The position numbers and the translations under genes were made by a program. DNA of 64,000 bases from NCBI RefSeq assembly GCF_023650955.1, contig NZ_CP098039.1, positions 806,001-870,000 of the forward strand. Reading direction: 5' to 3'. The notes under the pieces were generated by a model. That model saw only the letters and a list, made by a program, of their open reading frames with translations. It was not told where the DNA came from and ran no database searches. Shown piece after piece: positions 57,453-61,122 of the stretch. The DNA is from Thermosynechococcus sp. HN-54. Lineage in GTDB: Bacteria > Cyanobacteriota > Cyanobacteriia > Thermosynechococcales > Thermosynechococcaceae. Position 1 is the first letter of the stretch. Each line of letters starts with the position of its first letter.

Positions 57453-58184
57453 TCAGTGTAATGGTTCTGAACCATTCTCGGAGGGTTTCTGTGCTTGTCG
57501 AGCTACCCATCGAGCATACAGATCGGGGCGGCGTTGGCGAGTGCGTTCAATTTGCTGTGCCCGCCGCCATGCGGCAATTTCCCCATGGTGACCAGAGAGC
57601 AAGACGGATGGTACGGTCCAACCCTGAAATTCTGCAGGTCGAGTGTAATGGGGATAATCCAGCAAGTCGTCTTCAAAGCTCTCTTGGTGGAGGGAGGCCG
57701 CTTTGCCCACGGTGCCCGGCAACAGTCGCAGCACACCATTGAGAATCACAAGGGCAGGAATTTCACCACAAGTCAGGACAAAATCGCCAATGGAGATTTC
57801 TTGGGTCACCAAATGTTCCACCACTCGTTCATCCACTCCCTCATAGTGGCCACAAAGAATCACCAGTTGATCCCGTTCCCGCGACCAGTGCCAGAGGTGC
57901 TGCTGGGTGAGGGGTTGCCCTTGGGGGGTGACATAGATAACTTCCCGCCGCGGTAAGCAGGGCAACGATTCTACCGCAGCAAAGAGGGGTTCGGGTTTCA
58001 TCACCATCCCCACGCCACCGCCATAGGGTTCATCATCCACGCGCTGGTGCTTATCAGTACTAAACTGCCGCGGATTCGTCAGCACGACCTCAGCAATGCC
58101 CCGTGCCAAGGCTTTGGCCATTAACCCGCTGCTGAGGGGTGAGGTAAAGAACTCGGGAAAGAGGGTAATAATGTCAAAACGCAT
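57453..58184 (-). CDS. trmD: tRNA (guanine37-N1)-methyltransferase
   Basis: TrmD makes m1G37 in tRNA anticodon loops to prevent frameshifting; essential in most bacteria. The protein, 243 residues from ATG 58184, begins MRFDIITLFPEFF and has PYGGGVGMVMKPEP, ILCGHYEGVDERV and the trefoil-knot segment SIGDFVLTCGEIPALVI. It lies head-to-tail with the C-terminal piece of sppA: the sppA TGA overlaps the trmD ATG (TGATG), so trmD was probably translated by coupling to sppA before the insertion described at 58535. Confidence 0.95.
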   Translation of the reverse strand: MRFDIITLFPEFFTSPLSSGLMAKALARGIAEVVLTNPRQFSTDKHQRVDDEPYGGGVGMVMKPEPLFAAVESLPCLPRREVIYVTPQGQPLTQQHLWHWSRERDQLVILCGHYEGVDERVVEHLVTQEISIGDFVLTCGEIPALVILNGVLRLLPGTVGKAASLHQESFEDDLLDYPHYTRPAEFQGWTVPSVLLSGHHGEIAAWRRAQQIERTRQRRPDLYARWVARQAQKPSENGSEPLH

Positions 58185-58543
58185 CACTGGGGACGACACG
58201 ACAGGGAACCATAATAGGCAAGGGCGCGCAGTTGGCCAAGAGCACACAGTTGCTCCTGTTTCCATGCCTGCTGAGCCTCTGGCGCAGGGGGGGAGGGTTG
58301 AACGCCAAAAAGTTGGTTGATGAGGGGGGAGCGATCGCGCCGAAAACGCACAACGGCATACTCTCCCTCCTTAAGCCTGGCAGCAGTGGCAAGGGCGCTG
58401 AGGGTGTCTAGACGGCTGCGGGTACCATCAATCAGGCGGTAGCTTTGAGCCTGATCATTGCTAAAGATCATGGCTCCCATTTGGTTGCGGATGACACTGG
58501 GATCAATGCTGCGTGCCTGTGCCACATGATTGACCAAAAACAT
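58184..58543 (-). pseudogene. sppA: C-terminal piece of split sppA (signal peptide peptidase)
   Basis: This 119-residue frame begins MFLVNHVAQARSIDP and includes AQSYRLIDGT, which continues the SppA protease interrupted at 59921. Removing the insert joins EQEYTKF (from the other fragment) to LVNHVAQAR and restores one frame. The ATG at 58541-58543 is partly made by insert sequence, so translation of this fragment is possible but the catalytic part is elsewhere. The stop overlaps trmD. Confidence 0.85.
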
Positions 58544-59913
58544 TGGGATACAAGCCCCGTCCTGCTACGCACGACCTAACGGTCTACAGGACGGCTTTTC
58601 TTGATTCCTAATGTACTCGATTAGAACCCATTAACTTTAGCAGATACTCGGCAAATGAGCTTTTAATAGAAACAGGCCACTTCTATTAGACACCGTGAAA
58701 GTCCGATACCAGTACAGAATCTACCCAACTCCGGGGCAACAGTCCAAACTTGCTCGGCTGTTCGGTTGTTGTCGTGTCGTCTGGAATGATGCATTAGCAT
58801 TAATCAAATCAATCCCAAAGGGCGAGAAGTGGCCTAGCAATACTGAATTGCAGAAGCTCTGTATCACTCATGCCAAGCAAACCAAGGAACGACACTGGCT
58901 GGCAGAGGTCAGCAACATCCCCTTGCAGCAGTCCATCCGAGACCTAGCAGCCGCCTTGAAGAACTTCTTTGAGTCTCGGAAAGGGAAACAGGTTGGATTC
59001 CCTCGCTTCAAGAAGAAAACCAACGAGCAGTCCGCGCGGTTCACGAGAGGCGGTTTTGCAATCAAGGGGAAGAAGGTTTACCTCGCCAAGATTGGTGAAG
59101 TCAAAACCAAGTGGTCTAGACCATTACCGTCTGAACCCAGTTCAGTCACGGTCATCAAAGACTGCGCTGGACGATATTTTCTCAGCTTTGTGGTTGAGAT
59201 TGAACCTGTTCACATCGAACCTAAGAACCAAGGGGTCGGCGTGGATTTGGGATTGGAAACGCTCGCCACATTGAGCACGGGTGAAAAGGTGAAAGCGCCC
59301 GACACCAGTGCGTTAGACCGCAAAATCCGTAAAGGGAAGCGCAAACTTGCCAGAGCAGTAAAAGGCTCAAAGCGGCGTGAACGGTTACGGATGGCGATTG
59401 CTCGTATGGAGTCCAAACAGCGTCATATACGCAAGGACTTCAACCAAAAGCTGGCAACTCGTTTAGTTCGAGACAACAGCGTGGTCGTGCTGGAAGACTT
59501 AAATGTCTCTGGCATGATGAAGAATCGGCAGCTGGCAAGAGCGATTCGTCGAGCGGGCTGGCGACAAATCAGAACGATGTGTGAGGCCAAGGGCAAGATG
59601 ATTGCAGATCGGGAAGTCAGGGTTATCAACCGATGGGAGCCAACTTCTCAGGTCTGCTCTTGTTGTGGGTATCGATGGGGTAAGTTAGACCTCTCGATTC
59701 GGTCTGTCGTTTGCCTGAACTGCGGGGCTGAACACGATAGAGATGAGAATGCCAGCAAGAATATTGAGGCGGCAGGACGATGCCGACCTGAATGGGCAAA
59801 CGCTAAGCAGTGTAAGACCTCCATGGAGGCGGTTGCTTGTTTGCCTACCCATCAGGAGCCAGCCGAGTGCTGGCAGACTGGGAATCCCCGTCCTTGAGGA
59901 CGGTGGAGGATGT
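58535..59913 (+). mobile_element. IS605-family (IS1341-type) TnpB-only insertion in sppA
   Basis: A 1379-base insertion within sppA carrying only tnpB. The sequence CAAAAAC is present at both junctions (58535-58541 and 59914-59920), so the exact ends are ambiguous within 7 bases; TTGAC immediately precedes the left copy, like an IS605-family target. Near the left end CCGTCCTG (58557-58564) and CAGGACGG (58587-58594) form a hairpin with an inner GACC/GGTC stem; near the right end CCGTCC (59888-59893) and GGACGG (59898-59903) form another. No Y1 transposase (TnpA) is present, so movement would need TnpA in trans. Confidence 0.88.
58695..59897 (+). CDS. tnpB: TnpB RNA-guided nuclease of IS605-family element
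   Basis: A 400-residue TnpB with the OrfB helix-turn-helix at the start, a split RuvC domain and a zinc ribbon. Catalytic residues appear intact: Asp184 (GVDLGLETLA), Glu267 (VVVLEDLNVSG) and Asp350 (HDRDENASKNI). The zinc ribbon cysteines are in CSCCG and CLNCG. TnpB is the ancestor-type of Cas12 and uses a right-end omegaRNA to cut DNA at a target next to a TAM. The start is GTG 58695. The TGA stop lies in the loop of the right-end hairpin. Its base composition is less GC-rich and lacks the HIP1 sites that pepper its neighbours, in keeping with foreign origin. Confidence 0.93.
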   Translation: MKVRYQYRIYPTPGQQSKLARLFGCCRVVWNDALALIKSIPKGEKWPSNTELQKLCITHAKQTKERHWLAEVSNIPLQQSIRDLAAALKNFFESRKGKQVGFPRFKKKTNEQSARFTRGGFAIKGKKVYLAKIGEVKTKWSRPLPSEPSSVTVIKDCAGRYFLSFVVEIEPVHIEPKNQGVGVDLGLETLATLSTGEKVKAPDTSALDRKIRKGKRKLARAVKGSKRRERLRMAIARMESKQRHIRKDFNQKLATRLVRDNSVVVLEDLNVSGMMKNRQLARAIRRAGWRQIRTMCEAKGKMIADREVRVINRWEPTSQVCSCCGYRWGKLDLSIRSVVCLNCGAEHDRDENASKNIEAAGRCRPEWANAKQCKTSMEAVACLPTHQEPAECWQTGNPRP

Positions 59914-59935
59914 CAAAAACTTGGTGTACTCCTGC
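59750..59935 (+). ncRNA. Candidate omegaRNA (reRNA) with guide in sppA
   Basis: In TnpB systems a right-end RNA overlaps the 3' end of tnpB and its guide is the ~16-20 bases just past the element. Here the right-end hairpin CCGTCC-TTGA-GGACGG is followed by GGAGGATGT, and the expected guide is the flanking sppA sequence starting around 59914. The 5' limit is a guess; only the 3' part is supported by sequence. Confidence 0.45.
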
Positions 59936-60675
59936 TCTAAACCCGCTTGAAAGACCTGAATTTCCTGTGGGGTGAGACGACGGAAGGGATTGCCCACGTC
60001 TTTGCCCCGACCGGCACTAAGGGTGCGCTCTTCTATACTATTGGCCGTGACACCCCCTAGAAAGAGACCATTGTCAAGACTCGTGGGGCGATCGTAGTAG
60101 AAGATGCTAGGCCCCAGAATGCCAATACTGCCAATCATACTGCCGTGGTCAGCATAGATCTTATCTGCGGCCACCATCGCCCAAACACCCCCAGAGGCAG
60201 AAATACCCTCAACAAAGGCATAGACAGGGTTCTGGGTGGCTTCACGGTAGGCTTTGGTCCCCTCGGCGATCGCCTGTGAGCCAAAGATCGTGCCCCCCGG
60301 TGTGCTGATGTTTAAAAAAACAGCCTTAATGGTTTTGTCCTTGGCAGCCTCCGCCAACTGCTGCTGTACTTCATAGCCGTAGGTAACCCCCACAAGGGGA
60401 GCAAAGAACGTATCCTCCTCGTTTTGAGGACTTCCCAGAATCAGTCCTGTGATGTCAATTCTAAGAATGCGATCGCGACTCGTTTCTTTGCCGCTGACGT
60501 GTTCATAAGGGCTAGTTTCACTTGCAGGTGCCAGGAGAACTCCTAAAAGGGCAAAGAAGACGGTGGCACTGAAGCCCACCACCCCTAGCGTGAAAAAAAA
60601 GGTCAGCGTGCCAAAGAAAATCAGACCACAGCGGTGAAACACACTTGGCCAAAAGGGGGGAAGTGAGCGCGTCAT
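59921..60675 (-). pseudogene. sppA: N-terminal piece of split sppA (S49 signal peptide peptidase), catalytic part
   Basis: Residues from ATG 60675 encode a membrane anchor (GLIFFGTLTFFFTLGVVGF) and the S49 protease core, with the nucleophile in SASGGVWAMVAAD (Ser near 159) and the general-base lysine in GRGKDVGNPFRRL (near 225). At 59921 the frame runs into the insertion and ends in 21 foreign codons (from LTSSTVLK). The upstream TTG at 60726 is a poorer start. Without the insert the gene would be 370 residues. The last ~115 residues are lost here and lie at 58184. Whether the truncated core is stable or active is unknown. Confidence 0.87.
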
Positions 60676-60840
60676 GGATGAGCAGAAGAAACGGTTTGGG
60701 TATAATCTGAACAGCTTTTCAGTCAAATGTTTTACTTATTGTAGCCAGAGTAGGCGGTTTTCTCTTGTTTTTGCTCCTCACGACCCCCCTTGCCGTGTTG
60801 GCTCGTCATCATCCTTTTGCGAGGTAGGTTTTCTTCCCTA

Positions 60841-61122
60841 ATGAAGTCCTCTATTACCGCTGAGCAGTATCTCAATCACCCAACCTTTGGCTTGCTCTAT
60901 GGGGTATGTCCCCTTGATGAGCATCGGCAGCTCTTTACAACGCTGTATGCCCAACGGCTGTTCTTTGTTGTCAGTCAGCGGCCGGCGGGTATGGAGTTTG
61001 AGTCTATTAGTCGAACAGATGCGCGGATGCTCATTGAACAGCGGTTGCGATCGCTACGCCGTCTGGGTAAAACAGCTGAATACGAAGCCCTACAGGCCAT
61101 TTATCGGCAAGCTTTCATGTAA
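60841..61122 (+). CDS. pipX: PipX, PII-interacting coactivator of NtcA
   Basis: PipX binds 2-oxoglutarate-loaded NtcA to activate nitrogen genes and is sequestered by PII (GlnB) at high ADP/low 2-oxoglutarate. The 93-residue protein from ATG 60841 is unmistakable: YLNHPTFGLLYGVCPLDE, LFTTLYAQRLFFVVS, ESISRTDARMLIEQRLRSLRRLG and YEALQAIYRQAF, the Tudor-like domain and C-terminal helices. The ORF extends to 60790 but those residues are not conserved. It is divergent from sppA. I could not find an NtcA-type GTA-N8-TAC palindrome upstream. Confidence 0.95.
   Translation: MKSSITAEQYLNHPTFGLLYGVCPLDEHRQLFTTLYAQRLFFVVSQRPAGMEFESISRTDARMLIEQRLRSLRRLGKTAEYEALQAIYRQAFM

What the first reader, a model, noticed from the sequence alone, without database searches (positions are those of the whole stretch)
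58184..60675. sppA split by a TnpB-only IS605-family element; reconstructed gene is intact
The sppA fragments at 59921-60675 and 58184-58541 join to one 1113-base frame (370 codons plus stop) after removing 1379 inserted bases. CAAAAAC occurs at both junctions, preceded on the left by TTGAC. The catalytic Ser/Lys are in the upstream fragment; the C-terminal third is detached. The insertion also created the ATG that opens the downstream fragment. This is a recent and still readable disruption of a protease gene.
Basis: partly seen in the sequence, partly recalled or inferred. Interest (0 to 1): 0.75.

Follow-up and report, generated by a model that had tools for sequence, protein, structure and literature searches.

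The report
Jumping gene splits cyanobacterial protease gene
A small, ordinary transposable element that carries an RNA-guided nuclease gene has inserted cleanly into a protease-like gene of a heat-loving cyanobacterium; the gene is unbroken at that spot in all ten sister genomes examined, so this is a well-documented example of a known process rather than something new.

Summary
Confirmed, with corrections. An S49-peptidase (SppA-like) gene of a Thermosynechococcus genome is split by a 1382-bp IS200/IS605-type element (window 58535-59916) that encodes TnpB with an intact RuvC triad. Ten of ten sister genomes carry the empty site. CAAAAAC at both junctions is no target duplication: the left copy is the element's own start, the right copy is its last CAA plus flanking AAAC. 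The target, (T)TGAC, exists at this spot only in this genome (1 of 11). The element is a TnpA-less relative (93% over the matched 1245 bp) of a complete copy in the same genome, which holds the only Y1 transposase found there and has its own empty site in 8 of 10 sisters. The right end matches published IS608 logic (GAAT, hairpin, TCAA). Neither fragment is frameshifted or clearly relaxed, so the insertion looks young relative to the species split. The canonical SppA paralogue is intact. This is an ordinary IS insertion; the open angle is TnpB-driven fixation in a polyploid host, untested.

The parts
58184..58534 (-). 3' fragment of the S49 peptidase (SppA-like) gene, 116 codons plus stop; its TGA overlaps the trmD ATG (58184-58182)
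   Evidence: aligns in frame with 10 of 10 sister genes; trmD
58535..59916 (+). IS200/IS605-type element, 1382 bp, TnpB-only; starts CAAAAACATTGGG, ends GGATGTCAA
   Evidence: boundaries set by 10 sister empty sites and by the ends of the second copy (G000 1229541-1231266)
58530..58534 (+). TTGAC, target / transposon-associated motif left of the element
   Evidence: same pentamer left of copy 2; TGAC left of 10 of 10 G010 left ends seen, TTGAC in 6 of them; at this site in 1 of 11 genomes
58541..58543 (-). ATG supplied by the element, in frame with the 3' gene fragment
58557..58594 (+). left-end imperfect hairpin (main stem)
   Evidence: DNA fold of 58525-58604, z -2.89, 1 of 200 shuffles as good
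58695..59897 (+). tnpB, 400 codons from GTG; RuvC residues D184, E267, D350
59882..59916 (+). right end: GAAT, hairpin, TCAA; presumed 3' end of the TnpB guide-RNA scaffold
   Evidence: weak sub-threshold HgcC match
59917..59936 (+). presumed guide segment (flanking gene sequence just outside the right end)
   Evidence: inferred from ISDra2 (PMC8612924, passages); not shown here
59917..60675 (-). 5' fragment of the S49 peptidase gene, 253 codons, with Ser161 and Lys225; its frame runs 23 codons into the element and stops at 59845

Best explanation
A TnpA-less IS200/IS605 element was moved by the Y1 transposase of a complete relative in the same genome (or one since lost) into a TTGAC site on the plus strand, antisense to the SppA-like gene, by single-strand peel-and-paste without target duplication. 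It truncates the peptidase after residue 253, removing the last part of the S49 fold, and very probably inactivates it. The element still has both ends and a TnpB with intact catalytic residues, whose guide RNA would carry the adjacent gene sequence and direct cutting of any empty allele next to TTGAC, so that chromosome copies without the insert would be converted. Shown: the insertion, its exact ends, empty sites, the partner copy, conserved catalytic residues. Inferred: transposition by TnpA in trans, loss of peptidase function, guide-RNA production and homing.
For: 10 of 10 sister genomes have the uninterrupted site, 9 of 10 with a full open frame. A second copy (1726 bp; 93% identical over the matched 1245 bp) with the same start, the same TCAA end and TTGAC to its left holds a 134-aa Y1 transposase, the only PF01797 match in the genome; its own empty site is seen in 8 of 10 sister genomes. 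13 of 13 G010 relatives fetched end in TATGTCAA with differing flanks, and 10 of 10 of their left ends that I could find follow TGAC. The right end carries GAAT-hairpin-TCAA, the sequences printed for IS608 (PMC5934647, passages). TnpB D184/E267/D350 align with D191/E278/D361 of ISDra2 TnpB (the catalytic role of E278 and D361 is recalled, D191 is in PMC8612924). dN/dS of the two fragments against the nearest sister (G004) is 0.051 and 0.070.
Against: No strain of the same species could be compared (one genome per species is held). The two copies differ by about 7%, so copy 2 is not the immediate parent. The tnpB frame has lost the stop seen in copy 2 and runs 10 codons further, and no Rfam family reaches its gathering score on the right end, so TnpB activity is not assured. 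The right-end hairpin is not better than shuffles by energy (z -1.24, 28 of 200). dN/dS is a weak test for a young insertion because the G000 branch is long (dS about 0.95 to the nearest sister), and one comparison, the downstream part against G001, is high (0.226, against 0.142 for G004-G001). No expression data.
Confidence: 0.93

Rival explanations
1. A DDE-type or other duplicating transposon that left a 7-bp CAAAAAC target-site duplication.
For: CAAAAAC stands at both junctions.
Against: Copy 2 begins with the same CAAAAAC and ends in GTCAA followed by CTCG, with no repeat; no sister empty site holds CAAAAAC; the encoded protein is TnpB, and the only Y1 transposase found in the genome sits in the sister copy.
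Confidence: 0.02
2. The two frames are separate ancestral genes and the joined gene is a chance construct.
For: Both are open frames in the assembly.
Against: 10 of 10 sister genomes have one continuous coding region across this place; 9 of 10 are open from start to stop, and the tenth (G003) is shifted only near its start.
Confidence: 0.01
3. The element is passively carried in a dispensable gene and its TnpB is inactive (compatible with the insertion part of the main explanation, against the homing part).
For: One sister (G003) has a 1-base loss in a T run near the start of the same gene; a canonical SppA is intact; the tnpB C-terminus of this copy is altered; no guide-RNA family match at threshold.
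Against: RuvC triad intact; no clear excess of amino-acid changes in either fragment (a weak test).
Confidence: 0.35

Closest known systems
ISDra2 / IS608 (IS200/IS605 family, with tnpA and tnpB)
   Same: TnpB with RuvC triad, subterminal hairpin at the left end, no target duplication, short target kept on the left, right end with GAAT and TCAA as in IS608
   Different: this copy lacks tnpA; target is TTGAC (core TGAC), not TTGAT (ISDra2) or TTAC (IS608)
IS1341-type (TnpB-only) IS200/IS605 derivatives (group name recalled)
   Same: tnpB without tnpA between recognisable ends
   Different: here a complete tnpA-tnpB relative sits in the same genome, so it reads as a deletion derivative; where copy 2 has tnpA, this copy has a short stretch that aligns only in patches
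TnpB gene-drive behaviour of IS200/605 in multicopy plasmids (PMC11870625, abstract and outline)
   Same: TnpB would cut empty copies of a multicopy replicon
   Different: here the replicon would be a polyploid chromosome; nothing was tested

Membership tests
IS200/IS605 family | TnpB of the IS200/IS605 kind | tested here: met
   NF040570 296.4 bits (cut-off 100); NF038281 302.7 bits, below its own cut-off of 425; OrfB_IS605, HTH_OrfB_IS605 and Cas12f1-like_TNB above cut-off
IS200/IS605 family | Y1 (HUH) TnpA transposase | tested here: not met
   absent from this copy; the only PF01797 match of the genome is in the sister copy at G000 1229608-1229964, so this copy is a TnpA-less derivative, not an autonomous member
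IS200/IS605 family | no target-site duplication | tested here: met
   empty sites of both copies: 10 of 10 sisters for this one, 8 of 10 for copy 2
IS200/IS605 family | subterminal hairpin at each end | tested here: inconclusive
   left end better than shuffles (z -2.89), right end not (z -1.24), though the right-end hairpin also forms with different letters in copy 2
IS200/IS605 family | insertion 3' of a fixed short target | tested here: met
   TTGAC left of both G000 copies; TGAC left of 10 of 10 G010 left ends found, with T, A or C before it; 3 of 13 G010 copies gave no left end by exact motif
RNA-guided nuclease TnpB (not the dead TldR type) | RuvC D-E-D triad | tested here: met
   D184, E267, D350 aligned with D191, E278, D361
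RNA-guided nuclease TnpB (not the dead TldR type) | right-end guide RNA and cleavage of the donor joint | not testable with these tools
   RNA fold of 59790-59932 z -2.26; only a sub-threshold Rfam match
SppA (canonical, TIGR00706 equivalog domain) | score above the curated cut-off | tested here: not met
   intact protein of sister G004 122 bits against 155.45; the G000 paralogue at 937 kb scores 274.1
Peptidase family S49 | PF01343 domain with Ser/Lys pair | tested here: met
   10 of 10 sister genes over cut-off, the truncated window gene too (53.7 bits); Ser161/Lys225 (identity of the catalytic Lys rests partly on recall)

The most novel reading that the evidence does not exclude
A transposase-less element in a polyploid cyanobacterium keeps itself fixed at one locus by TnpB alone: its guide, read from the broken peptidase gene, cuts any chromosome copy that regains the empty site, so a gene loss is enforced by an RNA-guided drive rather than by drift, with the element-made ATG keeping the operon mate trmD translated.
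Probability: 0.2. Interest if true: 0.5.

Novelty: new member of a known kind. Interest (0 to 1): 0.2.

Why it matters
It is a clean natural case with exactly known ends, an empty site in ten sister genomes, a single transposase found in the genome that could have moved it, and a host genus with a reported polyploid strain, so TnpB-driven maintenance could be tested on a native locus. As a gene disruption it is ordinary.

Tried and rejected
Target-site duplication (rejected by copy 2 and the sister empty sites). Two ancestral genes (rejected by 10 of 10 sisters). Promoter for trmD inside the element: the scan of 58150-60900 found 2 promoter-like sites against 2.1 expected, both in the 3' gene fragment (58239-58211), so no claim. 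Rfam: only HgcC, 18.3 bits against a gathering score of 50. Element on plasmids: 3 records, 65-70% identity over 14-40% of the query, none near full length. Named relatives through genome contigs: 2 loci, which hold the sppA genes of two sister genomes already seen. The tiny-element pattern hit 1 of 11 genomes. The left part of the gene that copy 2 interrupts matched no NCBIfam family. Papers: TnpB with Thermosynechococcus 0 papers; insertion sequence + sppA + disrupt + cyanobacteri 1 unrelated listing; TnpB + cyanobacteri + IS605 22 papers, 10 listed, none read; PMC2246112, passages only, nothing on this element; listings otherwise not read.

Full report
Observation. The window is 64 kb of a one-contig, 2,705,963-bp genome, G000. 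The genus is Thermosynechococcus: the sppA genes of two of its sister genomes (G005, G006) are found unchanged in named Thermosynechococcus MAG records.

Empty sites. A genus search with the whole region matched all 10 sister genomes held, and in all 10 the gene runs on without the insert at this place. Nine of the 10 have a full open frame of 369 codons; the tenth, G003, has one T fewer in a T run near its start but the same uninterrupted site. The conserved Phe at that place fixes the cut: TTGAC | element | AAACTTGG. The element is therefore 58535-59916, 1382 bp, and the restored gene has 369 codons. The plus-strand pentamer at the site is TTGAC only in G000 (1 of 11 genomes); the others read TTAAT, TGAAT, GCAAC, CTCAC or GCCAC. 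The target thus exists only in this lineage, as a sequence-specific inserter would need.

The element. It encodes a 400-codon TnpB, related to ISDra2 TnpB of known structure, with D184, E267 and D350 aligned to D191, E278 and D361. It lacks tnpA. A second copy at G000 1229541-1231266 (1726 bp; 93% identical over the matched 1245 bp) has the same start and end, TTGAC at its left, and a 134-aa Y1 transposase; this is the only PF01797 match in the genome, against 8 TNB-domain matches above cut-off. Copy 2 also interrupts a gene: its flanks join in frame, and 8 of 10 sister genomes carry the uninterrupted gene; in the other 2 (G001, G008) only a neighbouring stretch matched and the site was not seen. 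This second empty site confirms the boundary rule independently. Thirteen of 13 G010 relatives fetched end in TATGTCAA followed by differing flanks. Of these 13, 10 gave a left end by exact motif, all preceded by TGAC: 6 TTGAC, 2 CTGAC, 2 ATGAC. So the core of the target is TGAC. The right end GAAT-hairpin-TCAA equals the guide and cleavage sequences printed for IS608 (PMC5934647, passages read). The right-end hairpin forms with different letters in copies 1 and 2; its folding energy alone is not exceptional (z -1.24), while the left-end fold (z -2.89) and the RNA fold of the last 127 bases plus flank (z -2.26) are somewhat better than shuffles.

What the CAAAAAC repeat is. The left copy is the element's own first seven bases, present at the start of copy 2 too; the right copy is the element's last CAA plus AAAC of the target. 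It is not a target duplication.

Effect on the gene. The upstream frame keeps 253 gene codons, reads 23 codons of element sequence and stops. It holds Ser161 and Lys225. The alignment of the intact sister protein with B. subtilis SppA runs to residue 304-305, so about 50 residues of the S49 fold, and the C-terminal tail, are cut off; loss of activity is an inference. The gene is the divergent S49 paralogue: the intact protein of sister G004 scores 122 bits against the 155.45 cut-off of TIGR00706, whereas the intact G000 paralogue at 937 kb scores 274.1. Each of the 11 genomes has two S49 matches. The next gene is trmD (TIGR00088, 314.5 bits against 195). The peptidase stop overlaps the trmD ATG in G000 and in 8 of 10 sisters (TGATG or TAATG), so the insertion also stands between trmD and its likely upstream transcription. 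The ATG at the element's edge is in frame with the 3' fragment and could keep that overlap translated; the left ends seen in G010 (CAATGAAATGGG) have no such ATG, so it is not a conserved device.

Age. Against the nearest sister (G004) dN/dS is 0.051 for the upstream and 0.070 for the downstream part; sister pairs computed without G000 range from 0.049 to 0.184 upstream and 0.090 to 0.193 downstream. One G000 comparison is high: downstream against G001, 0.226, where G004-G001 gives 0.142. No stop or frameshift lies in either fragment. The insertion therefore looks young compared with the species split (dS about 0.95 to G004), but on so long a branch the test is weak. It is not possible to say whether it is fixed in the species: one genome per species is held.

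Mechanism. ISDra2 TnpB binds an RNA made from the right end whose last about 16 nt come from the flanking DNA, and cuts the donor joint next to the target motif; the authors propose that repair then restores the element (PMC8612924, passages read). In multicopy plasmids the same activity is reported to act as a drive (PMC11870625, abstract and outline). A Thermosynechococcus strain, E542, is reported to be polyploid (PMC8091003, abstract and outline). By analogy the guide here would be AAACTTGGTGTACTCC..., next to TTGAC. A search with up to 3 mismatches found no such intact site in G000 itself; its single hit is the element's own right junction. In the sisters it found the orthologous site in 5 of 10 (3 mismatches each, two of them in the target pentamer), and unrelated places in 4 of 10 (G002, G003, G006, G007), the closest with 2 mismatches in G007. 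Homing is an inference.

Verdict. A well-supported, ordinary insertion of a TnpA-less IS605-type element, with corrected ends.

Noticed in passing
L090 (G001 C1 581739-581794) and L093 (G001 C1 about 1911659-1911717, minus strand): Tiny elements of about 50 bp in G001: TTGAC (L090) or CTGAC (L093), then a left end fused to the right-end hairpin and TCAA, with a single hairpin and no gene. They look like minimal non-autonomous IS605 derivatives; the exact pattern tried caught only L090, in 1 of 11 genomes.
   Followed up: partly
G000 C1 1229541-1231266 (L034): The complete tnpA-tnpB copy interrupts another gene that is intact in 8 of 10 sister genomes; it looks like a periplasmic binding protein by eye, but the left part matched no NCBIfam family.
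   Followed up: partly
L010 (G003): The sister SppA-like gene has 7 instead of 8 T in a run near its start, which shifts the frame: a sequencing error or an independent loss or switch.
   Followed up: partly
L091 and L092 (G000 C1 about 445400 and 110774): Left-end-like stretches of the same element type stand beside tRNA-Thr and tRNA-Arg genes; the one at 110.8 kb is followed by a frame that by eye resembles the start of another TnpB.
   Followed up: partly
window 59772-59929: The tnpB 3' end gives a sub-threshold match to Rfam HgcC (18.3 of 50 bits, E 0.36), best over the right-end hairpin; that RNA family may be related to IS605 right ends, or the match may be chance.
   Followed up: no
L034 2481-2574: A stretch of about 95 bp beside copy 2 recurs, in whole or part, at 8 further places in G000 and in 8 of 10 sister genomes at 71-87% identity, so it may be a dispersed repeat of the genus.
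   Followed up: no
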